From positions 83,563 to 147,562 of the forward strand of contig PHBO01000011.1 in NCBI GenBank assembly GCA_002840645.1: a DNA stretch of 64,000 nt. The letters are read 5' to 3'. The position numbers were made by a program, and so were the translations under genes. Source of the DNA: Candidatus Cloacimonetes bacterium HGW-Cloacimonetes-3 (GTDB lineage Bacteria; Cloacimonadota; Cloacimonadia; Cloacimonadales; Cloacimonadaceae). Shown here in pieces: positions 1-13,110 of this stretch. Each line of letters begins with the position of its first letter. The stretch's first letter is position 1. Under the pieces are notes generated by a model that did no database searches, was not told the origin of the DNA, and saw nothing but the letters and a program-made list of their open reading frames with translations.

Positions 1-426
1 GATGGAAAAGGCGGCTGTCTGGGCATGGTGCCACAGCGCAAACTGGTGATAACCGATAAGGGCAAAGGCTTTGGCGGCGTGGTGGTGAAGAACCCCGGTC
101 TGCAAAGCTATGCCTACAAGGTTATCGAAGCTCTCTCCTGGCGTGGACCCTGCGAGCTGGAGATAATGAAAGATGAAGAAGGCGTGTTTTACCTGATAGA
201 GATAAACCCCCGTTTCCCCGCCTGGGTACGCCTGGCAGAAGGCAGTGGGCAAAACCAGCCTGCGGCAACCGTGCTATTGGCAATGGGAGAAGAACAAGTG
301 CAGCTACCTCCCTTTAGACCGGGGACGCTGTTTATCCGCCATGCGGAAGACATTATCAGCGATATCAGCCTGCTGGGCGAAATCTCCGTGAATGGAGAAC
401 TAATCAGAACAAAGGTGGAGAAATGA
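1..426 (+). CDS. ATP-grasp domain protein, C-terminal part (5' end outside window)
   Basis: The reading frame is open from base 1, so the true start lies upstream and only the last 141 codons are visible. The segment DGKGGCLGMVPQRKLVITDKG followed by a glycine-rich stretch resembles the nucleotide-gripping part of ATP-grasp ligases of the carbamoyl-phosphate-synthase-like type. The later EINPRFPAW is the Glu-x-Asn metal-binding signature of the fold. Such enzymes form a C-N bond through an acyl-phosphate intermediate; the substrates here cannot be read from the sequence. The stop overlaps the next start (ATGA at 423-426), so it is translationally coupled to the PLP decarboxylase. Family assignment is good; function is open. 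Confidence 0.8.
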   Translation, partial: DGKGGCLGMVPQRKLVITDKGKGFGGVVVKNPGLQSYAYKVIEALSWRGPCELEIMKDEEGVFYLIEINPRFPAWVRLAEGSGQNQPAATVLLAMGEEQVQLPPFRPGTLFIRHAEDIISDISLLGEISVNGELIRTKVEK

Positions 427-1772
427 AGAAGAATTACACAGCCCCATACATAGAACGCAACAGTGCCGGAAACCTGAATAAATATGCTCATACCACCGTG
501 GTACGGCATCAGGATAGTATAGATAACGTACTGATTAAGGATTTGATAGCCGAGCACGGCAGCCCTTTGTTTGTATTCTCTGAGAAGCAGATACGCAGAG
601 CATATCGCCGTTTGCAGGATACCATCCGTATCCACTATCCTTTAGCCGATATCACCTGGAGCTACAAAACTAACTACCTATCCGCCATTTGCAATATCTT
701 CCATCAGGAAGGTGCCCCCGCGGAGGTAGTATCAGGCATGGAATACGAACTGGCAAGGCATAACGGCATCCCCGGCGACAACATATATTTCAACGGACCC
801 AGCAAGCGCAGAAGTGACCTAAGCAGAGCCATCAGCGAAGGTGCGTTCATCCATATAGACCATTTGGAAGAGCTGTACATGATCGAGAAACTTGCTGATG
901 AACTTGGCATTACTCCCAGAGTGGCAATCCGCATGAATATGGATACGGGCATCAGCCCTCTGTGGACACGCTTCGGCTTTAATTACGAGAATGGCGAAGC
1001 CTATCGTACGGTGCAACGTCTGGTTTCCGGCGGTAAGATGAAGCTAACCGGTTTGCACACCCATATCGGTACTTTTATTCTGGATCCCAATGCCTATTAT
1101 TGGGCTGCCCAAAAGATGCTCGTCTTTGCCCAAACCATCAAGGATAGCTTTAATATTGTAGTAGATTATATCGATCTTGGCGGCGGTTTTGCCTCCCAGA
1201 ACACCCTGATAGATCAGTACACTCCCGGCGAGCTTTCCTCTCCATCGTTTGAGCAATATGCCGAAGCGATTGGCACCGCATTTAATGCCTCCACCTTTGT
1301 AAAAGAGCATCATCCGCGCTTGATTCTGGAAACCGGCAGGGTGCTTATCGACGAAGCAGGATATTTGATTGCCAGCGTGCTTGGCAAAAAGAACTTGCCC
1401 ACCGGCGAACGTGCCGTTATCCTGGATGCAGGCGTGAACGTGAATATCACAGCCTGGTGGTATAAACAGCGGGTGGTGCCTACCAAACCTTTCCCCGGCA
1501 GCTACCAGAATACAGTGTTCTACGGTCCCCTGTGCATGAATATAGATGTTATCCGCTCTGCCATGCCCTTCCCTGATCTATATTACGGTGATACAGTGCT
1601 TATTTCACCTGTGGGAGCTTACAACGTTACCCAATGGATGCAGTTTATAGAATACCGTCCCAATGTGTGTCTTATCTCGGAAACCGGTAAAGTGGATATC
1701 ATCCGCGAGAAAGAAGATATGAGCGACATGATCGCCAGAGAGTTTATCCCGGAGCACCTGAGACGGGTATAA
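423..1772 (+). CDS. Group IV (alanine-racemase-fold) PLP-dependent decarboxylase
   Basis: This 449-residue protein has the layout of diaminopimelate/ornithine/carboxynorspermidine decarboxylases. YKTN, with Lys82 as the expected Schiff-base lysine, sits where DapDC has YAxKAN. It is followed by HTHIG, the phosphate-binding loop DLGGGF, ETGRVL (usually EPGR) and GPLCMNID, which supplies the cross-subunit active-site Cys and Asp. The family removes the alpha-carboxylate of a basic amino acid or related compound. The location next to an ATP-grasp ligase and a membrane protein, not among lysine genes, argues against housekeeping LysA. The substrate is unknown. It starts inside the upstream stop (ATGA) and ends 5 bp before the next gene. 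Confidence 0.82.
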   Translation: MKKNYTAPYIERNSAGNLNKYAHTTVVRHQDSIDNVLIKDLIAEHGSPLFVFSEKQIRRAYRRLQDTIRIHYPLADITWSYKTNYLSAICNIFHQEGAPAEVVSGMEYELARHNGIPGDNIYFNGPSKRRSDLSRAISEGAFIHIDHLEELYMIEKLADELGITPRVAIRMNMDTGISPLWTRFGFNYENGEAYRTVQRLVSGGKMKLTGLHTHIGTFILDPNAYYWAAQKMLVFAQTIKDSFNIVVDYIDLGGGFASQNTLIDQYTPGELSSPSFEQYAEAIGTAFNASTFVKEHHPRLILETGRVLIDEAGYLIASVLGKKNLPTGERAVILDAGVNVNITAWWYKQRVVPTKPFPGSYQNTVFYGPLCMNIDVIRSAMPFPDLYYGDTVLISPVGAYNVTQWMQFIEYRPNVCLISETGKVDIIREKEDMSDMIAREFIPEHLRRV

Positions 1773-1777
1773 AGTAA

Positions 1778-3979
1778 ATGAAGCTGTTTGACCGCATGAT
1801 GCCCCTATTCCGGGCAGTTGGAGGCGTGGTACTTGCCATTCCGCACAGTTATGCTTCCATCTTGTTCTCGGATTCCATATTGCTTGGCTTGATGCTTTTA
1901 CTGGTAACCCTGCTGTCTCCAATAGTGGGGCTGTCGGGATTGGTATCCCTGGTAGTGGCAATCTTAGTATCCCGCAGCATGGGCTTTGAAAGCTGGGAAT
2001 CCAGAAGTGGTATAGCGGCATTCAATAGCCTGATAATAGGTATGGCGGTGGGTTATTACTACCCCATGCAGATGATCTCGAATGCGCCTGCCTTCTATTT
2101 CGGCTTTTTGGCGATGATATCCATTGTTACTCTGCTTCTCTATCTGCTGCTTAGCTACATCTCCAATACCTTCTTCCGCCTGCCTGCCATGAGCCTGCCT
2201 TTCTCTATTGTGGCACTGGTGTTGTGGTACTATTTCGCCAGGTTGGGCTTTCTTTCCAATTACCCTTTCGATAAGCTGCTGCTATTCTCCAATCCACCCG
2301 TATTGCCGGAGTTCTGGCGCTTGTTCTTTGTAAGCCTTGGCTCTATCTTCTTTACCCCGGAAGTAGTTGCGGGAATGTTGGTAGCAGTGGCGTTACTTAT
2401 CATCACGCGCATCGGTTTTGTATTGGCTCTTTTGGGCTGGGCGATAAGCTTTTTCCTGATGCACTTGATGGGCGGAGTTGCCGGAAACGGAATGTTCTAC
2501 CCGGGTTTCAATGGTATCCTGATCATGCTGGCAATAGGCGGGATATATCTGCTACCGGGCAAGACATCCTGGCTGGTAGCTGCTTTCTCTACTGCTATCG
2601 GGTTCACTTTTATCATGTTGATGAACATGACATATTACCACTACAATAGCTTCACGGGATTGTACAGCCCCTTAGGCGTGCCGGTATTTGCCTTTCCGCT
2701 GAATATCGTGGTGCTGTTGGTGATCTTTACTTTGCGCTTGCGGATAGTGGTTACCAAGCCGGTAATGAACGACTTTGGCGTGTTTAATCCGGAACAAGCC
2801 CTGCAAACGTATCAGGAAAGGCACAAACGTTTCGGTAGCCTGGGTATTCCCCAGTTTGCCTTACCCTTGCAAGGAGAGTGGATTATTACGCAGGGGCACA
2901 GCGATGATATAACGCACAAGCTGGATTGGGCTTACGCCTGGGATTTTGAGATGCACGATAAGCAAAATCAGCCTTATGCTGCCGAGGAACATAGTGCCGC
3001 CGATTATTATGCTTTTGGCAAGCCGGTGTTTGCCTCCGCTGCCGGAACAGTGGTAAAAGTAATGGATGGCATCGTGGATAACCCTGTGGGACAGATAAAC
3101 GCCCGTGAGAACTGGGGAAATTACATTTGCATCTCGCATGGATACGGCTTATACAGCTTTTATGCCCACCTGAAACGTGGCAGTCTGCAAACCAAGCCAG
3201 GTGCTTATCTTAAGCAAGGTGATAAACTGGGCGCAGTTGGTAATTCCGGACGCTCTGCCGTTCCCCATCTGCATTTCCAGATACAGCTTGGTCCCGAGGC
3301 AGGTAGCCGCACAAGGTTGTCTCACTTGGTGAACTATAAACTGCATAAGGCAGATGGAACTGAGTTCATCGGCAGTGGCATCCCCAAAAAGGGTGAACTG
3401 CTATCTGCATTGGTGCCGGAAGAGCACTTGCAGAGTATGCTTGGCATGCAAAATAAAACAGAACTGAACCTGCAAGTGGTGCGGGGAAACAAACGAAGCC
3501 AAGAAACATGGAAGGTGGAACTGGATTTCTGGGGTAGATTTAAGCTGCTCAGTAGTAAGCGCAGTGAACTGGAATTCAGCGTTTATGGTGGCATCTACAA
3601 TGCCTTGTCCCTCAAGGGAAACCGCAACAGCGCACTGGCTGCCTTTGCACTGCTGGTTTCGCGTCTGCCATATAGCGAGAAGCACGAAATCAGCAGCAGT
3701 GACGAGCCCGCCCTTTCTGTTATCCTAAACCCGGCATTCCGACACCTGATTCTGCTGTTCACACCGCTGTTCCCGTTGCTGTATGCATGCACCAAATCCA
3801 GTGTGAAAAGTACACGTGAACAAGTTATTATCCACAGTGAAATAGCATACTATATTCTGGGAATCAGGTTCAGCGGTTTTAATGGAACTGTGAAGATAGA
3901 TAAATACCAGGGAATAAATGAGCTATTGCTATACAAAGGTAAACGCCTGATTCTGGAAGCCAAAGGCGAAGAGGCGTAA
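1778..3979 (+). CDS. Urea-transporter-like channel fused to a periplasmic M23 (LytM) peptidase
   Basis: This 733-residue two-part protein has about ten hydrophobic segments in residues 1-325. They contain both half-repeats of the urea transporter (UT) fold: GIAAFNSLIIGMAVG with LPAMSLPFSI, and GFNGILIMLAIGG with VPVFAFPLNI. The LP-x4-PF-like pieces are the pore motifs. From about residue 350 a soluble M23 metallopeptidase domain follows, with zinc ligands visible as HKLD, YAHL and HLHF. All expected ligands are present, so it may be active. A further 200 residues resemble no family I can name. M23 enzymes cut peptide crosslinks or glycyl bonds in the cell wall. It lies 5 bp after the decarboxylase. 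The natural solute and peptide substrate are not known. Confidence 0.82.
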   Translation: MKLFDRMMPLFRAVGGVVLAIPHSYASILFSDSILLGLMLLLVTLLSPIVGLSGLVSLVVAILVSRSMGFESWESRSGIAAFNSLIIGMAVGYYYPMQMISNAPAFYFGFLAMISIVTLLLYLLLSYISNTFFRLPAMSLPFSIVALVLWYYFARLGFLSNYPFDKLLLFSNPPVLPEFWRLFFVSLGSIFFTPEVVAGMLVAVALLIITRIGFVLALLGWAISFFLMHLMGGVAGNGMFYPGFNGILIMLAIGGIYLLPGKTSWLVAAFSTAIGFTFIMLMNMTYYHYNSFTGLYSPLGVPVFAFPLNIVVLLVIFTLRLRIVVTKPVMNDFGVFNPEQALQTYQERHKRFGSLGIPQFALPLQGEWIITQGHSDDITHKLDWAYAWDFEMHDKQNQPYAAEEHSAADYYAFGKPVFASAAGTVVKVMDGIVDNPVGQINARENWGNYICISHGYGLYSFYAHLKRGSLQTKPGAYLKQGDKLGAVGNSGRSAVPHLHFQIQLGPEAGSRTRLSHLVNYKLHKADGTEFIGSGIPKKGELLSALVPEEHLQSMLGMQNKTELNLQVVRGNKRSQETWKVELDFWGRFKLLSSKRSELEFSVYGGIYNALSLKGNRNSALAAFALLVSRLPYSEKHEISSSDEPALSVILNPAFRHLILLFTPLFPLLYACTKSSVKSTREQVIIHSEIAYYILGIRFSGFNGTVKIDKYQGINELLLYKGKRLILEAKGEEA

Positions 3980-4010
3980 GCCCCATTTGCATACAAAGAG
4001 GAGATAAACA

Positions 4011-4613
4011 ATGAAAAGCAAGTTTTTAGTCCTGATTATATGCCTTATTGCCGGCGTATTGCTGGCGCAAGGTAAATCCACGATTACAGATTCCTATAAC
4101 GCAGAAACTGCCAAGAATTATACCCGTGCTCTGGAGATTGTGCAGGAGATTGCCAAAGCAGATGCTAATGATGAATTCTACCAGCTTCGCATCGGTTGGC
4201 TGCAATATCTGTTGGGGCGTTATGACGAGGCAATAAAAAGCTATGGCAAATCAAACACCATAAGCCACAGTCTGGATGCCCAAACCGGGATTGTTAACTG
4301 TCAGCTTGCCCTGGGTAAATGGGACGAGGCACGGGCTTTGTCCGACCAGATATTAAAGAGCTACCCCCAAAGCACCACGATCCTTGCAAAGGCTGCTTAT
4401 GCAGCTTATATGAGGCAAGATTATGCCGGTGCTGCGGGCTATTATGCGCAAATTATCAAAATCAGCCCCTGGGATATGGAGATTCGCGGCTATCTGGTAA
4501 ATAACCTCTATCTTTCCAAAGATGTGGAAAATGCCCGCAAGCACTATCAGAAGCTGAAGAAGTACTACCCCGATTCACCTATAGTTAAGGAATACGCCAA
4601 AACCCTCGGCTAA
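4011..4613 (+). CDS. Exported TPR-repeat protein
   Basis: This 200-residue protein has a clear signal peptide (MKSKFLVLIICLIAGVLLAQ) and then helical repeats with the TPR spacing, for example AEIVQEIAKAD-type helices followed by LLGRYDEAIKSYGK and MRQDYAGAAGYYAQIIK. It is probably a periplasmic scaffold that binds a protein partner. An AGAGGAG-type ribosome binding site lies just upstream (AAAGAGGAGATAAAC). It is 31 bp behind the urea-channel/M23 gene and only 3 bp before the TPR-barrel gene, so the two TPR proteins are likely made together. Confidence 0.8.
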   Translation: MKSKFLVLIICLIAGVLLAQGKSTITDSYNAETAKNYTRALEIVQEIAKADANDEFYQLRIGWLQYLLGRYDEAIKSYGKSNTISHSLDAQTGIVNCQLALGKWDEARALSDQILKSYPQSTTILAKAAYAAYMRQDYAGAAGYYAQIIKISPWDMEIRGYLVNNLYLSKDVENARKHYQKLKKYYPDSPIVKEYAKTLG

Positions 4614-4616
4614 GGC

Positions 4617-5858
4617 ATGCGTTTACTGGTATTTATGGCAGTTCTGCTGCCGGTGATTCTGTTTGCTCAAAGTGCTCCGCCACTGCCACAATCGGCTGCC
4701 GGAGGTGGTGGAGCGGTACCCTCCAAGCCTGATTTGCTGAACCTTGCTTACGAGAACATGATGGCTGGGAATTATGCCAAAGCTGAGGAGCAATACCGCA
4801 GCCTGAAGGAAGCGGAGCCGGAAAATCTATCTGCACACGAGGGATATCTGTGGGCACTTAATGCGCAGAAGAAGTTTAGTGTTAGCCTGAAGGAATCGGG
4901 CAAACTGCTTAAGCAATACCCCGCTAATTCGCAATTCTACAATTACCGTGCTTATCCACTTCTGGAAAAGAAGCGTTTGCCTGAAGCACGCTATTTTTAT
5001 CTGAAAGCAGCCCAAAACCAAGCTGCCAATCCTATTGGAAATCAGATATCGCAAGAAGGGCTTGCCTATACTTACGATGCTCTGGGGGATTATCTGCGCT
5101 ATGACAGGCACCTGCAAGCCAACGCTGCTCTTACTCACATCCCTGCACGGAAGCCAAAACCGGAGTTCAGCAGTACCGTAGCTTTCGCACTTCCCGGTAA
5201 GGACAAATCTTCCCTAAACTTCGCTCAGGGAGTGGGCTACAAAACCTGGCACCTCAGTCTGGGCTATAATGATTTTAGCGTGAACCAAAAGCACTTCCGC
5301 TCCCTTACATCTGCTGCTGTAGTTAAGCAATTTATCCCCTTTGATCTAAAAGCCGGGGCGATACTGATGGATGGCATCGATGAGAGAGTTTACCCCGCCA
5401 AGCAAGCAGATATAAGGCTTACCCCGAAGTTATATGCAGGATCTCTGGTACTGCGACCCGCGGTGATGGCATCTTTCAGCAGTTACTCCCGCTTCGATGT
5501 ACAGCAGATAAGCTTCCTGCCGGAGTTATTATGGCGGGATCTAACTATCAGCTATGCTGCCCATTACAGCTACATGGATAACAAAACTGTAGATGCAGAC
5601 AGCACTCGCTTTGCCCAGCAAGTACTGATAGCTAAGAGCATGCCCTGGAATACTACTCTGGGCTTACATTATGGCAGTGGCGACAATTGCTGGATGGTGG
5701 ATAGCAGCGGCTCTGTAATGGATACATTTGAGCAGCAAAGCGCCTATTACGGCGTGTCTCTGCTTGTGCCTTTCCTGAACCGCTATTCTATCTATGCCTA
5801 TCATAACGTACAGGACAACCGTCAATTGTGGTATGCGTCCTTAACGGTGAGGTATTGA
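4617..5858 (+). CDS. TPR domain fused to an outer-membrane beta-barrel (YaiO-like)
   Basis: This 413-residue protein has a signal peptide (MRLLVFMAVLLPVILFAQ), TPR-like helices over residues 35-180 (YENMMAGNYAKAEEQYRSLK is typical), then about 230 residues of alternating beta-strands ending in an aromatic residue (LTVRY), as outer-membrane barrels do. The order TPR then barrel is that of the YaiO family. Barrels of this type are often found with exopolysaccharide export. The pairing with the preceding periplasmic TPR protein suggests a contact across the periplasm; this is inference. Its TGA shares one base with the ATG of the following lipoprotein. Confidence 0.72.
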   Translation: MRLLVFMAVLLPVILFAQSAPPLPQSAAGGGGAVPSKPDLLNLAYENMMAGNYAKAEEQYRSLKEAEPENLSAHEGYLWALNAQKKFSVSLKESGKLLKQYPANSQFYNYRAYPLLEKKRLPEARYFYLKAAQNQAANPIGNQISQEGLAYTYDALGDYLRYDRHLQANAALTHIPARKPKPEFSSTVAFALPGKDKSSLNFAQGVGYKTWHLSLGYNDFSVNQKHFRSLTSAAVVKQFIPFDLKAGAILMDGIDERVYPAKQADIRLTPKLYAGSLVLRPAVMASFSSYSRFDVQQISFLPELLWRDLTISYAAHYSYMDNKTVDADSTRFAQQVLIAKSMPWNTTLGLHYGSGDNCWMVDSSGSVMDTFEQQSAYYGVSLLVPFLNRYSIYAYHNVQDNRQLWYASLTVRY

Positions 5859-8599
5859 TGAAGGCTATATATATGTTGAGGCTTAGTACATGCATGCTGT
5901 TATGCCTGTTGTTGATAAGTGCCTGCAATAACAGAGAGGACATCCTGCTACCCCCGAACCTGTCTGCTGCGGAATATCTGGAAGGTAACAAGATAGAAAG
6001 CTATGCCAATTACTTAGTGAAATCCGCCAATGACGACAGCTATTTCTTGCTGGATAAACTGGCAATTGCCGATTCCCTGCTAAACTATGGCGATGTGATA
6101 GACTTTCGCAGAGTGCAGAGCCTAAGTGCAAGAGACAGCCTGGCTGTACAGGATAACGCCGTTGCCAGAAGTAAAACTTACCATCTCAGAATTAGCAGAA
6201 ACGGACAGCAATTGAACCTGATTGGCAGAATCCCTTTAGGGCAGGTATATACAGAGCTAACTACCTGCGAGGCACCGTATATTGTAAACTTTGCCTACTA
6301 CCTGCAAGCAACGGAAGTGCAGCTTACCTATTATGGTAGTAACCGCGCCTATTTCCCTCTTTTTTCCACAGGTGAATTTGGCGTGTATGATATTCCTGCC
6401 ACGGAAAACGCAAGCATTACCTTTAACACAAACACTGCTGTGCATGCCATGCTGATCGGGACTAACGGCAAGCGGCTTGCCGTGAACTTCCCCGCGAGCT
6501 ATACAGGCGCAGCCGGGCAGATTACGTTAAGCATGGGCGGAAGCTTAAGCCTTGCAGAGCAAAATACGCTGCAAGGCTTCTTTCCCGATGCAGCCATTAG
6601 CACATCTGTAATTAGTATGCAAACAGCCACATCGGTGGGGACGGCAATTGCTGAGCTATGGTACAAAGACGGTAGTAAAAGCTTTTTTAGCGAGCAATGG
6701 GTGTGCCTTGCTCCTCCAGTAGCATATTCGTGGCAATCTACTAATGATGACACACAAGCTAACAACTGGTGGCAGGACAGCACAGGATTGTACAGCTTTG
6801 TGGCAGGGAGCGGGAAGTACTTTCTGCTTAATCCTCTGGATGCCCAGAGTGATATAGAAATCCCCCTTGACGGCACTTACAATCAGGTATTCTTACAGCA
6901 GCTGTGGTTCGATCTGCAAGAGATTAACCTTCCCAATACCGTGATGAAAGTTATCCCCAATCCCTATACCTTTGGCACCATAGCAAGCTATTTCAGCGGA
7001 AAGCCCTTCATAACTCACGCTGGGAGAAAGGACTTTAATATCCAATTCTACGAAGCGGGTAACCCTATCAGGGAATTGCCCAACGATGCCTGGCTGGAAT
7101 TTGGCTTCCGCGCATCACTACCTCTGGCAGGCACAGAAAGATTGTTCAGCTGTATTCGAGAAGCAGACGAAGACATCATAACCTACAAAACCCCCTCAGA
7201 TACGTATGACGCACAACATTTCAGCAGAACAGGCTCATACATATACACGGGCATAAACAGCTCTGCAACATATATCTATGGTGGTTTTAGCGAAGACCAG
7301 AACGAGCAGATATTTCCCTATCTGAAAAGCAAGCAATACATCCAAACTTCTAAAGCAACCGTAGGCTGGAGCAGCTCTGTAAAAAGTGATTATGAAGAAC
7401 TAAGGGTAAAGCTCACACCAACCCTGCCTTCGCATCCCTGGCTGAACGGAGAACCCTTGCAGCTTACTGATAAACAGGCTGTGGCAGAGTGCTATTTCTA
7501 CAATGCTAATGTGGTGCAAAGCACCTTGCCGGCGGGCTTTAACCTAAGTATTCCCTATAGCGGAACCGCAGATAAGCTGTTGTTATATAACAATCTCAGC
7601 TATCCGCGCCTGAAGCTGTACCACGAATCCACGGCATACGAGGGTGATACTTTCCTGTTAACCGACGGCAGTTTAAGCATCTATCCCGAATACCCCGGAA
7701 CATTGATCGGTGCTTCTGTCACCTATCCTAACCCAATGTCCCTGCGCACATACCCCACCATGACCTTTGTGCTGGATGAATTGCGGCTCTACACGTATGG
7801 AAATGCGGCTGCGGGAACGAGTGCCGTGTTTAGTATAAACAAGACCGCAGCTCCGGCAGATCCCTTCAATATTCTCACCAGTCAATACACACTTAGCCAG
7901 ACTTCTCCGGCATACACGGTTACCACAGCAGAGGAAGCTGATTATGACACTTTCCAGCCCATGCTGTTTTTCAAACGCAGCCGCAGCCGAAACCTTCTGT
8001 TCTACGAGCGAACCGGCACACCCTACCGCTTGTATTCTTATACTGAGAGCAGCAGCTACAGTCCCTGGAACTTCATGATAGATGGAGCTTACAACGGCAT
8101 CTCCCTAAGCTATAATGGCACTTATGCTTCCTACTCGGAAGCTGCTGTCCACAGCAATGTTACCCACACAGTGAAAGGCTTTGGGCAGGATATTTACCTA
8201 TCTCTTTATCAGGCGCAGTTCGTGCTGCCAAGCTATTTCATGGAGGGAGCGGTACCACAGAATACGGTATTGGAGCTAAAGAAGTTAAGCTCCCTGCCTG
8301 GCACAACAGATTTGCTGTCCGCCTATCAATTGCAATTTACCCAGCCCAATGGAATGCCCATATACCCGGATTTCTATAATGTTATTGGCGCGCCGCAAGA
8401 GCCTTACATCTACCTACCCATCAGCGATGTAAGTGCCATTTCCAGCGCAAGATTGTTTTACCGGAATCAGTTTGGTCAGATAACGGAACTAAACCGCGTG
8501 CAGAGCTTTGGTGATAATTATGCAGAAGAATACACAGTGTTTGGCAACTGTTTTATCTGCACTGTCCCCAATACGGGGATATTTTACATCACAAGGTAG
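5858..8599 (+). CDS. Large lipoprotein of unknown function
   Basis: From the ATG at 5858 this encodes 913 residues. A longer reading from GTG at 5828 is possible, but the ATG gives a signal peptide at once (MKAIYMLRLSTCMLLCLLLISAC) with a lipobox (LISAC) and a one-base overlap with the upstream stop. Beyond the lipidated Cys the protein is rich in Tyr, Thr, Ser and Asn with beta-sandwich-like patterning, and I recognise no catalytic motif. It is the last gene of the six-gene run. A surface-exposed or outer-membrane-anchored partner of the neighbouring barrel is the simplest guess. Confidence 0.75.
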   Translation: MKAIYMLRLSTCMLLCLLLISACNNREDILLPPNLSAAEYLEGNKIESYANYLVKSANDDSYFLLDKLAIADSLLNYGDVIDFRRVQSLSARDSLAVQDNAVARSKTYHLRISRNGQQLNLIGRIPLGQVYTELTTCEAPYIVNFAYYLQATEVQLTYYGSNRAYFPLFSTGEFGVYDIPATENASITFNTNTAVHAMLIGTNGKRLAVNFPASYTGAAGQITLSMGGSLSLAEQNTLQGFFPDAAISTSVISMQTATSVGTAIAELWYKDGSKSFFSEQWVCLAPPVAYSWQSTNDDTQANNWWQDSTGLYSFVAGSGKYFLLNPLDAQSDIEIPLDGTYNQVFLQQLWFDLQEINLPNTVMKVIPNPYTFGTIASYFSGKPFITHAGRKDFNIQFYEAGNPIRELPNDAWLEFGFRASLPLAGTERLFSCIREADEDIITYKTPSDTYDAQHFSRTGSYIYTGINSSATYIYGGFSEDQNEQIFPYLKSKQYIQTSKATVGWSSSVKSDYEELRVKLTPTLPSHPWLNGEPLQLTDKQAVAECYFYNANVVQSTLPAGFNLSIPYSGTADKLLLYNNLSYPRLKLYHESTAYEGDTFLLTDGSLSIYPEYPGTLIGASVTYPNPMSLRTYPTMTFVLDELRLYTYGNAAAGTSAVFSINKTAAPADPFNILTSQYTLSQTSPAYTVTTAEEADYDTFQPMLFFKRSRSRNLLFYERTGTPYRLYSYTESSSYSPWNFMIDGAYNGISLSYNGTYASYSEAAVHSNVTHTVKGFGQDIYLSLYQAQFVLPSYFMEGAVPQNTVLELKKLSSLPGTTDLLSAYQLQFTQPNGMPIYPDFYNVIGAPQEPYIYLPISDVSAISSARLFYRNQFGQITELNRVQSFGDNYAEEYTVFGNCFICTVPNTGIFYITR

Positions 8600-8621: not shown

Positions 8622-9287
8622 TTAGCGTTCCTCTCTGTGTGCATCCATCCATTTCATAGCGCGGGCTTTCACCTTTTTAATCGCAGCCGGTTTCAGCTGC
8701 CTGGCGATAACCTCGATACTATCGTAAGATTCATCCCAGGAATCCGGGAAGCACAGCAGTATCCAGAAATAGGCTTCTTTGACATTCTTTTTAACGCCCT
8801 TGCCTTCCAGATAGCATGAACTTAAAGCGAATTTGGCATCGCTAACGTTTTGGTCTGCTGCCAATTGATACCAATAAACCGCTGTCTTCATGTCTTGTGG
8901 CACCCCTGAACCCTGTTCGTAGCATTGACCAAGGCTAAACTGTGCATTGGGATCGCCCTGTCGTGCAGCTTTGTTCCACCAAGCCACGGCTTTCGCCATT
9001 TCTGCCTCGGAATAAATATCTGCACTAAAATCTCCCATCCAGTTTTGGGCTGCGGGAAAGCCTTTCTCGGCAGCTTCACTAATCATGCTGTAACCCTGAG
9101 ATAAGTCCATCTTAACGCCTCTGCCCAGGATATAATAAACACCAGCATAATAAATTGCTTCTATATCGCCTTTTTCTGCTTCGATACGGTACTTCTCGAA
9201 TTCTGCGGTTTCATCCGTATCCCATTCACTTGCTATCAAATTGCCTAAAATGCAGCAAACGATAACAAACATCCATAGCTTCTTCAT
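8622..9287 (-). CDS. Exported Sel1-repeat protein
   Basis: The chosen ATG at 9287 (MKKLWMFVIVCCILGNLIAS) follows GGGAG at a normal distance and gives a signal peptide; 221 residues. At least three or four Sel1-like repeats are visible, with the A-x2-G-x5-LG-x2-Y-x-G-GV pattern (AQFSLGQCYEQGSGVPQD, AKFALSSCYLEGKGVKKN). Sel1 repeats are alpha-helical protein-protein interaction modules. It converges on the lipoprotein gene with 22 bp between stops and is separated from the arsenic operon by a dispersed palindromic repeat, so it is probably a single-gene unit. Confidence 0.82.
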   Translation of the reverse strand: MKKLWMFVIVCCILGNLIASEWDTDETAEFEKYRIEAEKGDIEAIYYAGVYYILGRGVKMDLSQGYSMISEAAEKGFPAAQNWMGDFSADIYSEAEMAKAVAWWNKAARQGDPNAQFSLGQCYEQGSGVPQDMKTAVYWYQLAADQNVSDAKFALSSCYLEGKGVKKNVKEAYFWILLCFPDSWDESYDSIEVIARQLKPAAIKKVKARAMKWMDAHREER

Positions 9288-9355
9288 GGATAACTCCCTA
9301 TAGCAATCATTGTTGTTGCACATTTTTTAGCTGTAAACGAAATAGTCAAGCAAAA

Positions 9356-9463: not shown

Positions 9464-9895
9464 TTAGCCGCTGCTTAGGCTTTCAAGCCGCTCCACAATC
9501 CTGGCATGTATATCATCTCTGCAAGCACGAAAAGAGCTAACTACCTCTTCCTCGGGGGCTTTGCCGTATAGAACGGGATCGGCTATGCTGATGTGCACCA
9601 TCTTTACCGGTTTTGGGAAGATAGGGCAGTTACGCTTTGCATGGTCGCAAACACTTATCACCAAGTCCAGATCGTCCATGTACAAAAACTCCGTGATACC
9701 CTTGGATTTCAAGTAGCCTGTTTCTATCCCCAGTTCCTGTAATACCTGTATAGACCGGGGATGCACGTGAGAGGGATGTGTCCCCGCAGAAAACGCCTGC
9801 CAGGTATCCCCGAAATAGTGGTTTATCAAAGCTTCTGCCATAACGCTGCGGCAGGAATTGCCGGTGCAAAGAATCAGCACTTTCTTCTGTGTCAC
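9464..9895 (-). CDS. arsC: Arsenate reductase, low-molecular-weight phosphatase type
   Basis: This 143-residue protein reduces arsenate to arsenite in the cytoplasm. It has the CX5R P-loop C10-TGNS-C15-R16 and the second redox pair Cys83 and Cys90 (VCDHAKRNCP). These match the spacing of thioredoxin-coupled ArsC of Staphylococcus type (Cys10/82/89). The DP of ISIADPVLYG supplies the general acid. Two thioredoxins are encoded in the same operon and are plausible electron donors. It is the last gene of the seven-gene ars operon, 2 bp behind the exported thioredoxin gene. Confidence 0.92.
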   Translation of the reverse strand: MTQKKVLILCTGNSCRSVMAEALINHYFGDTWQAFSAGTHPSHVHPRSIQVLQELGIETGYLKSKGITEFLYMDDLDLVISVCDHAKRNCPIFPKPVKMVHISIADPVLYGKAPEEEVVSSFRACRDDIHARIVERLESLSSG

Positions 9896-9897
9896 AT

Positions 9898-10293
9898 TTA
9901 TTCCTTTTTCGCAGGTTTTCGCTTTATCCCCATATGCGTATCCAGCATCTTGATCATCTCATCTTTGGGGTAGAATCCTTCATGGCGGCTAAATTCCTTG
10001 CCGTCCTTATCCAGAAACACCTGGGTGGGGATAACACGCACTTTATACTTTGTGGACATAGCCTTGTTTTCCGGCTTCCAGACATCGTAGAAGATCACTT
10101 CTATCTTATCGCCATACACCGCTTCCACTTCCTTCATCACAGGCTGCATCATCTTGCAGGGAATGCAGTTAACAGAGCCAAGCTCAATGAAGGTAACCAG
10201 TGGCTTGGGTGGTTTTACCTTGGCACTTAACTCTGTGCAGCAAAGAAAAAGCACTAAGCTAAGGAGGAGGATTGCATGCCATAATCTATTCAT
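9898..10293 (-). CDS. Exported thioredoxin-like protein
   Basis: The ATG at 10293 follows the preceding stop by one base and gives a signal sequence (MNRLWHAILLLSLVLFL) before a thioredoxin fold; 131 residues. The redox motif is Cys43-Ile-Pro-Cys46 with the cis-Pro segment RVIPTQVFLD. The exported location distinguishes it from the small cytoplasmic thioredoxin two genes upstream. With the CcdA-like membrane protein in the same operon it could carry thiol electrons across the inner membrane. A lipoprotein reading of FLCC is possible but not convincing. Confidence 0.85.
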   Translation of the reverse strand: MNRLWHAILLLSLVLFLCCTELSAKVKPPKPLVTFIELGSVNCIPCKMMQPVMKEVEAVYGDKIEVIFYDVWKPENKAMSTKYKVRVIPTQVFLDKDGKEFSRHEGFYPKDEMIKMLDTHMGIKRKPAKKE

Positions 10294-10294
10294 T

Positions 10295-10714
10295 CTATAG
10301 TCCTTTGTCTGATACTTTTTGCACAAGTATATCAATTAGAGCGGGATCAAAGCTAAATGTGCCTTCTTTCTTGATGCCCAACTGCGTAATGATTACATGT
10401 TTATAGTTTGTTTTACCCTGCTTATCAAACATTTTCTTCAGGCAAGCTACTGCACAGCCATCGATCAGCAGGTCTTTGGGCGTATCGGGAGCAGTAACAC
10501 TTCCACAGGCACAATCCCCCGCGCCTACGCAAACAGCGCAGCCCATCTTATACTTGCCTGCAAGGTGCAAAGCCTTGGTTAGCTCCAGAGTTATAATCCC
10601 TACATTGCTGGCTCCCGTGCATGCATAAACGCTTGCCGGAGCATCATTGGTAACGCAGCCGGTGTCACAGCTGATATTGCTGCTGCTGCCACAATCGCAT
10701 TTACATTCAGCCAC
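10295..10714 (-). CDS. DGC-domain putative zinc-binding protein
   Basis: This 139-residue cysteine-rich protein has an N-terminal cluster (CKCDCG, CDTGC), then VYACTGASNVG, GCAVCVGAGDCACG and DGCAVACLKK. These are characteristic of the DGC family of putative metal-binding proteins. Members are often found in arsenic and thioredoxin neighbourhoods. A role in binding arsenite or zinc, or in thiol transfer, is inferred. The gene is tightly packed: 3 bp after the small thioredoxin and 1 bp before the exported one. Confidence 0.8.
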   Translation of the reverse strand: MAECKCDCGSSSNISCDTGCVTNDAPASVYACTGASNVGIITLELTKALHLAGKYKMGCAVCVGAGDCACGSVTAPDTPKDLLIDGCAVACLKKMFDKQGKTNYKHVIITQLGIKKEGTFSFDPALIDILVQKVSDKGL

Positions 10715-10717
10715 GGG

Positions 10718-10957
10718 TTACATTCCTTTATTGATGAAAGCTTTCACATCTGAGGGAGACAACAGCTTACCGCTGGAGACCACCTTCTCATCTATCACCA
10801 GTGCGGGGGTCGTCATCACGCCATAAGCCATGATGGCAGTTAGATCGGTAACCTTTTCCACGGTAGCGGCAACACCGCTTTCGGCGATTGCTTTGTTCAC
10901 GTTTTCTTCCAGCTTCTTGCATTTGCTGCAGCCGCTGCCAAGTACTTTAATGATCAT
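10718..10957 (-). CDS. Small thioredoxin (TM0996/MTH895 family)
   Basis: This 79-residue glutaredoxin-size thioredoxin has the redox centre GSGC-SK-C-KK (Cys10, Cys13) and cis-Pro in MTTPALVID. It matches the redox-active disulfide protein 2 family, which commonly sits beside CcdA-like permeases and ArsP permeases. It is cytoplasmic, with no signal peptide. It probably supplies electrons to ArsC or to the adjacent membrane protein. AAAGGAG precedes the start. Confidence 0.9.
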   Translation of the reverse strand: MIIKVLGSGCSKCKKLEENVNKAIAESGVAATVEKVTDLTAIMAYGVMTTPALVIDEKVVSSGKLLSPSDVKAFINKGM

Positions 10958-10968
10958 GATAAACTCCT

Positions 10969-11664
10969 TTATTTGAAGATAAGATATACTCCGGCAGCGA
11001 TTACCAGCACTGCACAGAGACGTTTTAAGATTATTAAGCCGCGTGACCCTTCATTCCAGTTCAGCACTTTTTGCACCATGCCAAGCGAAGTTCCGGCAAA
11101 TACTATCACCATGCAATGTCCCACTCCATACACCAGCATAATGATAATCGCCATGGGCATATTGGTAGCTCCCAGGCTGAATGCCAGCGTCAAAACAGGT
11201 GCCATAAAGGCAAAAGCACAAGGTCCCAGTGCCAAACCGAACAACAAGCCTACGATGAATACCACCAAAGGCTTGGTGCCATCAGGCTTCAACTTTGAGA
11301 TAAATGAGATGCTGCCGATAGGAATGATATCCAGCAGCAGGATCCCACCCAGACACAAAGCTATGCCAAAGATTAAGTTTGCATGGCTGCCCAGATCACC
11401 CAGCATCCTGCCTAAAAGAGCAGTGATAACCCCGATCAGGGCGATACTTAGCAATACTCCCACGGAAAACAGCAGGCTTAAGCGAAAGGTCTGTTTTATG
11501 CTTAGCGTTCGTTTCCCCATCAGCATTGCCACTACCAGGGGGATGCTGGAAAGATGGCAGGGGCTTAGCAGCACACTCGCAATACCCCACAAAAAGCTTG
11601 CCAGCGCAGCTATGGCAAGATTGCCGTAAAGGGCAGTGTACAGGGAGTTGAAGATGCCTTCCAT
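10969..11664 (-). CDS. CcdA/DsbD-like membrane thiol transporter (ArsG-like permease)
   Basis: This 231-residue protein has about six membrane spans. Cys36 in SPCHLSS (first span) and Cys149 in GPCAFAF (fourth span) are the paired cysteines by which CcdA-type proteins pass electrons across the membrane. Homologues in some ars operons are named ArsG and linked to efflux of trivalent organoarsenicals. Between a permease and a thioredoxin, either a thiol relay or arsenical efflux would fit; the sequence does not decide. It begins directly at the end of arsP with no gap. Confidence 0.82.
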   Translation of the reverse strand: MEGIFNSLYTALYGNLAIAALASFLWGIASVLLSPCHLSSIPLVVAMLMGKRTLSIKQTFRLSLLFSVGVLLSIALIGVITALLGRMLGDLGSHANLIFGIALCLGGILLLDIIPIGSISFISKLKPDGTKPLVVFIVGLLFGLALGPCAFAFMAPVLTLAFSLGATNMPMAIIIMLVYGVGHCMVIVFAGTSLGMVQKVLNWNEGSRGLIILKRLCAVLVIAAGVYLIFK

Positions 11665-12633
11665 TTACATTATCCAGTTGAACAAATAGCCAGTGAACAC
11701 TATTCCCGATCCCACGATGGCGATGAAGATCATCAATAATCTTGGTTTCAACACTCTGCGCAGCAGAATCATCTCCGGCAAGCTGAGGGCTGTTACCGCC
11801 ATCATGAACGCCAGTGAGGTGCCCATTGCCACTCCGGCACGGGTAAGCTCGCTAACCAAGGGAATCACACCTGCCGCATTGGCGTACAACGGAATCCCTA
11901 CCAGCACCGCGACCAGCACCGCAAAGGGATTACCTTTGCCTGCCAGATGAGCTAATGCATTTGCCGGCACCCAACCATGCATGATGCCGCCAATTCCTAT
12001 GCCGATAACCACATATATCCATATTTTCTTTAGCAGTTCCCAGGTGAAGCTCCAGGCATCCTGCAATCTTTCTTTTTGGGAAGGCGTTGCCATTTCCGTA
12101 GCGGCACCAACCTTCATTTGCCAAACCTTGTCTTCCACATAGCGTTCCAGCTTCAGTCTGCCGATGATCATCCCGCTAATGATGGCGATAAGCTCTCCGG
12201 AGATCACATAGATCAGGGCTATCTTCCAGCCGAATAACACATAAAGCAAGCCTAATGCCACTTCATTAACCATCGGTGCGGCAATTAGATAACTAAAGGT
12301 TACTCCCAGAGGGATGCCTGCTTCCACAAAACCAATGAACAGCGGTACGGCGGAGCAGCTGCAAAAAGGAGTTACTATTCCCAACAGCGCTGCCATAATG
12401 TGCCCGACAAAGGTGCTGCCTTTCCGCTTTGCCAGAATCGCCTTGGTGCGCTCCGGCGGGAAGTAGCTGCGGATGTAAGTTATTACTACAATAATGACCG
12501 ATAGCAAGATGAATATCTTGATCGTATCAAACAAAAAGAATTGCAGAGCCGAAGCCCAGTGATTTGCCTCATCCATCCCAAACAGGCTATATACCATCCA
12601 CTTTGTGATAGCATCCCACCATCCAAACATCAT
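11665..12633 (-). CDS. arsP: ArsP-type permease
   Basis: This 322-residue permease of the DUF318/ArsP family has about eight to ten membrane segments and the signature TPFCSCSAVPLF near residue 90, followed by AAPMVNEVAL. The cysteines of this motif are thought to coordinate trivalent organoarsenicals in characterised ArsP proteins. Some members of the family have other thiol-linked substrates. It is 4 bp behind arsR and abuts the CcdA-like gene. Two adjacent ATGs (12633 and 12630) are possible starts. Confidence 0.87.
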   Translation of the reverse strand: MMFGWWDAITKWMVYSLFGMDEANHWASALQFFLFDTIKIFILLSVIIVVITYIRSYFPPERTKAILAKRKGSTFVGHIMAALLGIVTPFCSCSAVPLFIGFVEAGIPLGVTFSYLIAAPMVNEVALGLLYVLFGWKIALIYVISGELIAIISGMIIGRLKLERYVEDKVWQMKVGAATEMATPSQKERLQDAWSFTWELLKKIWIYVVIGIGIGGIMHGWVPANALAHLAGKGNPFAVLVAVLVGIPLYANAAGVIPLVSELTRAGVAMGTSLAFMMAVTALSLPEMILLRRVLKPRLLMIFIAIVGSGIVFTGYLFNWIM

Positions 12634-12637
12634 CGCC

Positions 12638-12916
12638 TCACTTCATCTTTCTCATACAGGAATAAAAGTCCAATACGCAAGGACACAGCAAGCTGTAAAA
12701 CACTTGGTTATTATGCTTGCGGCTGGAGATAATCCCTGCTTGTTTTAGTACAGACAGGTGTTTGGATACAGTGGACATGTCTAATCCTATATGTGCCTGT
12801 AGTTCGCATACACATTGCTCTTTTTCCTTTAACATATCCAGAATGAACAAGCGGGTGGGGTTTGCCATCGCTTTCATTATCACAGTCATCTGTACGTATT
12901 TGCTATCATTTCTCAT
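12638..12916 (-). CDS. arsR: ArsR-family metalloregulator
   Basis: The preferred ATG at 12916 follows GAGGA by 5 bases and gives 92 residues, the usual size of ArsR repressors. A reading from 13075 would add 53 residues of low-complexity character and is unlikely. The winged helix is complete (ANPTRLFILDML, then DMSTVSKHLSVLKQAGII). EQCVCELQ (Cys35, Cys37) corresponds to the ELCVCDL arsenite site, and Cys78, Cys80 and Cys87 lie at the C-terminus. It presumably represses the seven-gene operon it heads and leaves DNA when As(III) binds. Confidence 0.9.
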   Translation of the reverse strand: MRNDSKYVQMTVIMKAMANPTRLFILDMLKEKEQCVCELQAHIGLDMSTVSKHLSVLKQAGIISSRKHNNQVFYSLLCPCVLDFYSCMRKMK

Positions 12917-13110
12917 TGGTTCCTCGTTTATGTTTAAACCGTATTTTGCCACTTTGCCAAATAGCCAAGATTGGTCAAGCTTTTTTTCTTGCTTCTTATC
13001 GACATCTGACACTAAGCCCACCATGATAAGACCTTTGAATAATCGGAACGTTGAATTTATTCGGCTGGACAGCAAGATTTATCTGGTGAGAAGCATTCGC
13101 ACATTTGTGC

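What the first reader, a model, noticed from the sequence alone, without database searches (positions are those of the whole stretch)
1..8599. Candidate new envelope system: ligase, decarboxylase, urea-channel/peptidase, TPR, barrel, lipoprotein
Seen: six same-strand genes with overlaps or gaps of 31 bp or less, running from cytoplasm to outer membrane: ATP-grasp ligase, group IV PLP decarboxylase, inner-membrane UT-like channel with M23 domain, periplasmic TPR protein, TPR-barrel and 913-residue lipoprotein. Known: each family is recognised, but I know of no pathway joining them. Inference: a small amine or peptide could be made inside and used at or exported through the cell envelope, coupled to wall cleavage by M23 and an outer-membrane exit.
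Basis: partly seen in the sequence, partly recalled or inferred. Interest (0 to 1): 0.75.

Follow-up and report, generated by a model that had tools for sequence, protein, structure and literature searches.

The report
Leader-tagged decarboxylase and envelope-channel operon
Bacteria from several phyla share an apparently undescribed operon in which a decarboxylase starts with a RiPP-type leader tag, encoded beside a predicted tag-binding (PqqD-like) protein, a ligase and a urea-channel-like protein fused to a peptidase; together they would likely make a small amine-like compound and pass it to the cell envelope.

Summary
It also starts one gene earlier: an 82-aa PqqD/RRE-like protein lies just upstream of the window, overlapping the ATP-grasp gene. 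The order PqqD > ATP-grasp > decarboxylase > UT-M23 holds in 31 of 31 Cloacimonadota loci with enough upstream DNA (5 more are cut by contig ends) and in 11 of 16 loci outside the phylum. All 46 of 386 genomes with the ATP-grasp also have UT.

New: (1) The decarboxylase begins with Y-x-x-P-x-I-x5-G-x-x-N-K, the leader motif bound by lasso-type RREs: of 166 tails read, Y in 165 (W once), P in 166. The PqqD protein's closest solved relatives are the lasso RREs TfuB1 and TbiB1. (2) The decarboxylase keeps its catalytic residues but lacks those for DAP, ornithine or citryl recognition. (3) UT lost urea-filter residue E187 in 48 of 48. (4) UT-M23 has a third, possibly LolA-like domain.

Best reading: an RRE-held ligase-decarboxylase pair makes a decarboxylated, side-chain-capped amino acid that UT-M23 and the barrel move outwards. 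Chemistry and transport are inferred. M23 wall cleavage is unproven; evidence on its side of the membrane conflicts. Seven literature searches aimed at the cassette found nothing.

The parts
1..426 (+). 3' part of the ATP-grasp ligase gene (last 141 of 357 codons; start 648 bp upstream of the window). A PqqD/RRE-like gene lies directly before it, 896-648 bp upstream of window base 1
   Evidence: closest solved structures 2pn1 and carbamoyl phosphate synthetase large chain
423..1772 (+). Group IV (alanine racemase fold) PLP decarboxylase, 449 aa, catalytic residues intact, substrate-recognition residues unlike DAPDC, ODC or FigC
423..488 (+). N-terminal leader-like tail of the decarboxylase (residues 1-22), YxxPxI...G..NKY
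   Evidence: YxxP as RRE recognition sequence: PMC12710340 section 7
1778..3979 (+). UT-M23 membrane protein with a third, possibly LolA-like domain, 733 aa
1835..2731 (+). UT (urea transporter fold) domain without the urea filter residues E187 and Q24
2840..3334 (+). M23 (LytM) metallopeptidase domain, H380/D389/H464/H497/H499 intact
3422..3976 (+). C-terminal half-barrel domain, middling matches to YmcC, DUF1849, LolA and ApoB lipid-binding folds
   Evidence: middling scores
4011..4613 (+). TPR protein with signal peptide (by inspection), 200 aa
4617..5858 (+). TPR domain plus predicted outer-membrane barrel, 413 aa
   Evidence: barrel by inspection only
5858..8599 (+). 913-aa lipoprotein (lipobox ISAC), no confident family

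Best explanation
A conserved operon encodes a PqqD-type RRE protein, an ATP-grasp ligase and a PLP decarboxylase that begins with a lasso-type leader tail, and the RRE would bind this tail so that ligase and decarboxylase likely act as one complex that would make a decarboxylated, side-chain-capped amino acid which the UT-M23 protein is predicted to pass towards the envelope. Shown: the genes, their order, the conserved tail, the intact decarboxylase and M23 residues, the lost urea filter. Inferred, in order of certainty: (1) the RRE docks on the decarboxylase tail, since the search of the genome found no other PqqD-like protein and no other MKKxYxxPx start, and no conserved separate precursor peptide was found near the operon; (2) the ATP-grasp ties the side chain of an amino acid into an amide or ureido bond and the decarboxylase then removes its alpha-carboxylate, as FslA/FslC do with an NIS synthetase (PMC7857480) and BtrJ/BtrK with a carrier protein (recalled); its pocket, mapped by alignment to FigC, is neutral and aromatic (M372, W346, Y347, Q404, W405, Q407), so the cap is probably neutral, not citrate; (3) the altered UT domain lets this product through the inner membrane, with M23 and the third domain trimming or holding it; (4) the TPR protein and outer-membrane barrel pass it on or use it.
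For: Order PqqD>ATP-grasp>decarboxylase>UT-M23 in 31 of 31 testable Cloacimonadota loci (own genome; 30 loci; 5 further loci cut by contig ends) and 11 of 16 loci outside the phylum. ATP-grasp family in 46 of 386 genomes, all 46 with UT (53 of 386). Tail: over 159 aligned sequences Y 159, P 159, I 158, G 154, N 157, K 157; 7 further loci left out of that alignment, read one by one, have Y 6 and W 1, P 7, N 7, K 6. At under 70% identity Y and P 16 of 16, I/G/N/K 15 of 16 each, neighbours variable. The tail with W in place of Y belongs to the one unlinked triad, and W/YxxP is the recognition class of such RREs. PqqD profile's best solved relatives: lasso RREs TfuB1 2e-10, TbiB1 7e-10. Single PqqD-like match in the genome and single MKKxYxxPx start. 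Decarboxylase best matches: N-citrylornithine decarboxylase, DAPDC, BtrK; Met after the catalytic Cys 159 of 159 as in FigC. E187 absent in 48 of 48 UTs.
Against: No binding, enzyme or transport data. No substrate identified. The PqqD protein is below the cut-offs of NCBI's lasso-RRE models (40.6 bits against 70). UT may be only an anchor. M23 sidedness conflicts: K+R bias puts it in the cytoplasm (447 vs 196, higher in 48 of 49 sequences, one of them dvUT); the third domain's matches and pI 7.6 lean to the periplasm, though the operon's lipoprotein has pI 5.2. One cassette (L084) has UT without M23 and two ATP-grasps, so M23 is not indispensable. In G130 UT-M23 is unlinked. The conserved N-K after the leader is more than docking alone would need. 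Seven of 53 UT genomes gave no ATP-grasp match; in these the UT match is weak (G106, G332), sits near a contig end (G054, G068, G072, G378) or beside a masked stretch (G219).
Confidence: 0.4

Rival explanations
1. Fused-precursor or carrier-arm reading: the decarboxylase tail is itself the substrate. The RRE presents it, the ATP-grasp ligates an amino acid (for example to the conserved Lys20), the decarboxylase processes it in cis, and M23 cuts the product off at a glycine.
For: G..NK[FY]G after the leader is nearly as conserved as the leader, more than docking needs; M23 intact in 49 of 51 and on the cytoplasmic side by charge bias; no separate precursor found; BtrK-type decarboxylases act on carrier-bound amino acids (for the relationship; chemistry recalled).
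Against: Would consume or load an enzyme; Lys20 is replaced in L084 (Pro) and L081 (Val); L084 also lacks M23; no direct sign that Lys20 is modified.
Confidence: 0.16
2. One reading: a small amine or peptide made inside, with periplasmic M23 cleaving peptidoglycan and an outer-membrane exit, i.e. wall cleavage coupled to export or surface assembly.
For: M23 catalytic residues intact, a third domain with middling matches to periplasmic carriers, TPR and barrel partners with signal peptides by inspection.
Against: Loop charges put M23 in the cytoplasm in 48 of 49; the UT model aligns over the whole of known UTs without an extra helix; RRE and leader tail not explained.
Confidence: 0.2
3. Surface-polymer or peptidoglycan modification system: a diamine or aminoacyl group made by ATP-grasp and decarboxylase is put on an envelope polymer (in the manner of Dlt or cadaverine-peptidoglycan; both recalled).
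For: L040 and L041 carry a DltB-like MBOAT and a DltD/SGNH-like protein inside the cassette; L084 has an HGSNAT-type acyltransferase gene two genes after UT.
Against: Profiles of the two inserted proteins hit only L040 and L041 among 51 loci, one genus; decarboxylase lacks the acidic residue that binds a free side-chain amine.
Confidence: 0.15
4. The RRE and tail are relics of a lasso-like pathway and the enzymes now work alone on a free metabolite.
For: No precursor peptide found; no lasso cyclase among the 38 proteins scanned with Pfam, which were a selection of neighbours.
Against: Tail and RRE kept together wherever upstream DNA is available; a relic would decay.
Confidence: 0.07

Closest known systems
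Lasso-peptide RREs (TfuB1, TbiB1) and their YxxPxL leaders
   Same: The PqqD-like protein's nearest solved relatives are these; the tail carries YxxPx[IL] and a downstream Gly
   Different: The leader sits on a 450-aa decarboxylase, not on a small precursor; no lasso cyclase among the neighbours scanned; below NCBI's lasso-RRE cut-offs
FslC/FigC N-citrylornithine decarboxylase (rhizoferrin)
   Same: Best family match (224.5 bits) and best solved relative (7kh2); Met after the catalytic Cys
   Different: Below the family cut-off of 500; citryl-contact residues H357 and R387 are I374 and Q404; partner is ATP-grasp, not an NIS synthetase
BtrJ/BtrK (butirosin)
   Same: ATP-grasp plus group IV decarboxylase pair; BtrK is a close solved relative (7ru7, 2j66)
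   Different: No acyl carrier protein among the neighbours scanned; an RRE-like protein is the small partner here (BtrJ and carrier roles recalled)
UT urea channels (dvUT, UT-B)
   Different: E187 lost in 48 of 48, Q24 in 47 of 48; fused to M23 and a third domain; 53.9 bits against the yut cut-off of 274.6
PQQ and mycofactocin pathways (recalled)
   Same: RRE protein plus decarboxylation or oxidation plus metallopeptidase logic
   Different: No radical SAM enzyme in the conserved gene row, no small precursor gene found, different ligase and peptidase families

Membership tests
PqqD/RRE family | PF05402 match over cut-off | tested here: met
   52 bits, cut-off 23.4; best solved relatives lasso RREs
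PqqD/RRE family | binds a leader peptide | not testable with these tools
   no complex prediction or binding data; motif on decarboxylase is indirect evidence
Lasso-peptide RRE (NF033530 and NF033536) | score over NCBIfam cut-off | tested here: not met
   40.6 bits against 70 and 24.8 against 80; works like, not filed as, a lasso RRE
RiPP biosynthetic cluster | separate precursor peptide gene | tested here: inconclusive
   no conserved small ORF of 22-110 aa by BLAST in three or more loci and no common ORF in 500 bp upstream; very short or distant peptides could be missed
RiPP biosynthetic cluster | RRE recognition sequence (YxxP class) | tested here: met
   present, but on the decarboxylase: 159 of 159; 6 of 7 more plus one WxxP
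Diaminopimelate decarboxylase (LysA) | TIGR01048 score over cut-off | tested here: not met
   206.9 bits, cut-off 297.9
Diaminopimelate decarboxylase (LysA) | acidic residue after catalytic Cys and Arg343 for the distal carboxylate (PMC7857480) | tested here: not met
   Met 159 of 159; Thr 158 of 159, Ser 1
N-citrylornithine decarboxylase | NF041039 cut-off | tested here: not met
   224.5 bits, cut-off 500
N-citrylornithine decarboxylase | H357 and R387 contact the citryl group | tested here: not met
   Ile 158 and Leu 1 of 159; Gln 159 of 159 (positions mapped by the alignment)
Group IV PLP decarboxylase | PLP lysine, stacking His, Cys-x-x-x-Asp | tested here: met
   K82, H214, C371, D375 in 159 of 159
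UT urea transporter | UT fold | tested here: met
UT urea transporter | filter residues Q24 and E187 (numbering recalled) | tested here: not met
   E187 0 of 48, Q24 1 of 48
UT urea transporter | urea conduction | not testable with these tools
   needs transport assay
M23 peptidase | zinc and catalytic residues | tested here: met
   all five in 49 of 51 sequences; L070 cut, L084 has no M23
M23 peptidase | periplasmic location | tested here: inconclusive
   charge bias says cytoplasm; third-domain matches and pI lean to periplasm
LolA/LolB-like carriers | half-barrel fold | tested here: inconclusive

The most novel reading that the evidence does not exclude
A new class of biosynthesis in which an enzyme carries its own RiPP leader and attachment lysine: the RRE hands the decarboxylase's tail to the ATP-grasp for loading, the decarboxylase works on its own arm, and a channel-fused M23 peptidase on the cytoplasmic side releases the product straight into a repurposed urea channel.
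Probability: 0.13. Interest if true: 0.93.

Novelty: categorically new. Interest (0 to 1): 0.76.

Why it matters
If the RRE really binds a leader built into a metabolic enzyme, RREs are not limited to small-peptide natural products, and genome mining that looks for small precursors beside RREs would miss this class. The operon is in many uncultured Cloacimonadota, but decarboxylases with the same tail also occur in cultured genera (Persephonella, Thermovibrio, Desulfurobacterium, Thermodesulfatator, Hippea, Hydrogenothermus), where the names seen are alanine racemase or diaminopimelate decarboxylase. I did not see the gene neighbourhoods of those named records, but the idea can be tested there. 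It also points to likely misannotation of a large protein family and presents a urea-channel fold that lost its urea filter.

Tried and rejected
Separate RiPP precursor: small-ORF clustering over 50 of the fetched loci, L002 included, gave clusters in three or more loci only for the PqqD gene and its antisense shadows; upstream ORFs over 42 loci, compared by eye, showed no common peptide (a few loci share what looks like the end of an upstream gene). Plain DAPDC, ODC and citrylornithine decarboxylase: rejected on residues and scores. Urea channel: rejected on filter residues. Defence system: no PADLOC match for six proteins. The 2,985-aa frame in L072 looked like a decarboxylase fusion, but 8,500 bases there read N, so it is no evidence. 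Fold of the third UT-M23 domain: only middling matches; an unlisted fold is not excluded. Cysteine content did not tell cytoplasm from periplasm. Chance co-occurrence: Fisher p about 1e-52, not corrected for kinship; the out-of-phylum figure computed there assumed 262 genomes and is not used. Literature: ten searches; seven aimed at the cassette listed no paper on it by title or abstract start, and three at leaders, FslC and borosins. One search matched 241 papers on two of three terms and showed ten. Of listed papers I opened PMC12710340 (passages, section 7), PMC7857480 (passages, sections 7 and 8) and PMC8503589 (term search, no hit); the two that hold both words were not opened. The library lacks most subscription papers.

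Dropped from counts: 7 loci whose decarboxylase my gene caller missed or that were fetched later (L063, L079, L081, L089-L092) are not in the 159; I read their tails afterwards. L041, L043 and L049 hold only part of the gene. L068, L069, L085 and L086 are missing or partly missing in the UT counts because the gene is cut. After this check I lowered the novel case from 0.15 to 0.13 and its rival row from 0.18 to 0.16, because Lys20 is Val in L081.
Full report
Setting. The window is bases 83563-147562 of contig C20 in a 2.68 Mb genome; closest named relatives are Cloacimonadota MAGs. I read the neighbourhood upstream.

Observation. The six genes are as described. The ATP-grasp gene is cut by the window edge and is 357 codons long. 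Immediately before it, sharing TGATG, lies an 82-aa gene of the PqqD/RRE family. It is the only PqqD-like match found in the genome.

Conservation. UT (PF03253) is over cut-off in 36 of 124 Cloacimonadota genomes. I fetched 35 of these neighbourhoods besides the window's own. In the own genome plus 30 loci the order is PqqD > ATP-grasp > decarboxylase > UT-M23, all on one strand and mostly touching; the other 5 (L036, L038, L041, L043, L049) end at a contig end before the upstream genes. The full row with TPR, TPR-barrel and lipoprotein is present in 24 of these 36, counting L040, where two genes are inserted, and L048, where barrel and lipoprotein matches are partial. A sample of 386 genomes reaching beyond the phylum gave 53 with UT, 51 over the cut-off. 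I fetched all 16 hits outside the phylum; one of them, L086, is below the cut-off. The four-gene order is in 11 of 16 (L071, L073, L075-L079, L081-L084; L084 has two ATP-grasps in tandem). L074, L085 and L086 are cut by contig ends, L072 is masked, and L080 has UT-M23 alone. In the L080 genome the triad PqqD-ATP-grasp-decarboxylase stands together on another contig; in L074's genome the triad is also on another contig. With the ATP-grasp profile at E <= 1e-40, 46 of 386 genomes match, and every one of them also has UT. The seven UT genomes without an ATP-grasp match are G054, G068, G072, G106, G219, G332 and G378. In the loci outside Cloacimonadota family f1 the lipoprotein is often missing; in several a ~300-aa protein, which I read as an outer-membrane barrel from its signal peptide and strand pattern, follows UT-M23. 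It has no Pfam match.

The leader on the decarboxylase. Across 15 aligned decarboxylases Tyr5 and Pro8 are invariant in a tail that precedes the catalytic domain. Over 159 sequences (120 database hits, 38 loci, window) the counts are Y 159, P 159, I 158, G16 154, N19 157, K20 157. Seven loci outside that set were read one by one: Y in 6 and W in 1, P in 7; position 10 is I in 5, L in 1, F in 1; N in 7; K in 6, V in L081. After reduction to 16 sequences under 70% identity, Y and P are 16 of 16, while neighbouring positions vary. The 120 hits are the best of 7,997, so they are not a random sample. PMC12710340 (section 7 read) gives YxxP as the lasso recognition sequence and W/Y/LxxP/L/I as the class bound by FusE, McjB, PqqD and StsC. 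The PqqD-like profile's best solved relatives are the lasso RREs TfuB1 and TbiB1, although the protein stays below NCBI's lasso-RRE cut-offs. In the unlinked triad the tail reads WEKPTI, a substitution that this class allows. A DNA pattern for MKKxYxxPx[hydrophobic] hits the genome once, at this gene, with no hit for the reversed control. No conserved separate precursor was found. I infer that the RRE's partner is the decarboxylase itself.

Chemistry. The decarboxylase has all catalytic residues checked. Its best relatives are N-citrylornithine decarboxylase, DAPDC and BtrK. From PMC7857480 (passages and sections 7-8 read), FigC has Met next to the catalytic Cys instead of the acidic residue that holds a free side-chain amine, and is modelled to contact citrate by H357 and R387. 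Ours has the Met (159 of 159), but Ile (158) and Gln (159) at the other two places, and Thr (158) where DAPDC has Arg343 (positions mapped by me from the alignment). So the substrate is probably an amino acid whose side chain is capped by a neutral group; the ATP-grasp, whose nearest solved relatives are 2pn1 and carbamoyl phosphate synthetase, would add that cap. A ureido or amide cap would fit; this is inference.

Variants. L040/L041 add a DltB-like MBOAT and an SGNH/DltD-like protein, not found by profile in the other 49 of 51 loci. L084 has two ATP-grasps, a UT without M23, then SIR2 and HGSNAT-type genes.

Verdict. The system is real, spread over phyla, and not described in the papers I could search. 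The RRE-tail pairing is my firmest inference (about 0.75), ligase-then-decarboxylase chemistry about 0.55, transport by UT about 0.4. I put the explanation as a whole, in its main line (the RRE-held ligase-decarboxylase pair feeding an envelope export), at 0.4; the later steps are less certain.

Noticed in passing
window 9464-13075, - strand: Looks like an arsenic/redox operon: ArsC-like phosphatase-fold protein, thioredoxin, small metal-binding protein, CcdA-like protein, permease and ArsR-like regulator (read from the translations only; names recalled).
   Followed up: no
window 8622-9323, - strand: Sel1-repeat protein convergent to the operon (Pfam Sel1); marks the operon's downstream end.
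   Followed up: no
L040:4933-7280 and L041:5230-7578 (- strand): DltB-like MBOAT plus SGNH/DltD-like gene inserted between UT-M23 and TPR in one genus: an acyl-transfer accessory to the cassette.
   Followed up: partly
L084:5967-12835: Divergent cassette with tandem ATP-grasps, UT without M23, then a Sir2 gene and an HGSNAT-type acyltransferase; tail keeps YEKPTI but lacks NK[FY]G.
   Followed up: partly
G000:C24:11590-12711 (L094): Second LysA-like decarboxylase of the genome, also below the LysA cut-off (175 bits); whether it is the real DAP decarboxylase was not tested.
   Followed up: no
L086:1-7244: Cut UT-M23 gene (UT match below cut-off) at a contig end, followed by a Porin_5 barrel and a solute-binding protein; could be a cassette-free use of UT-M23.
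   Followed up: partly
L080: UT-M23 whose upstream neighbour is an ABC-transporter ATPase, apart from the triad of the same genome (L089).
   Followed up: partly
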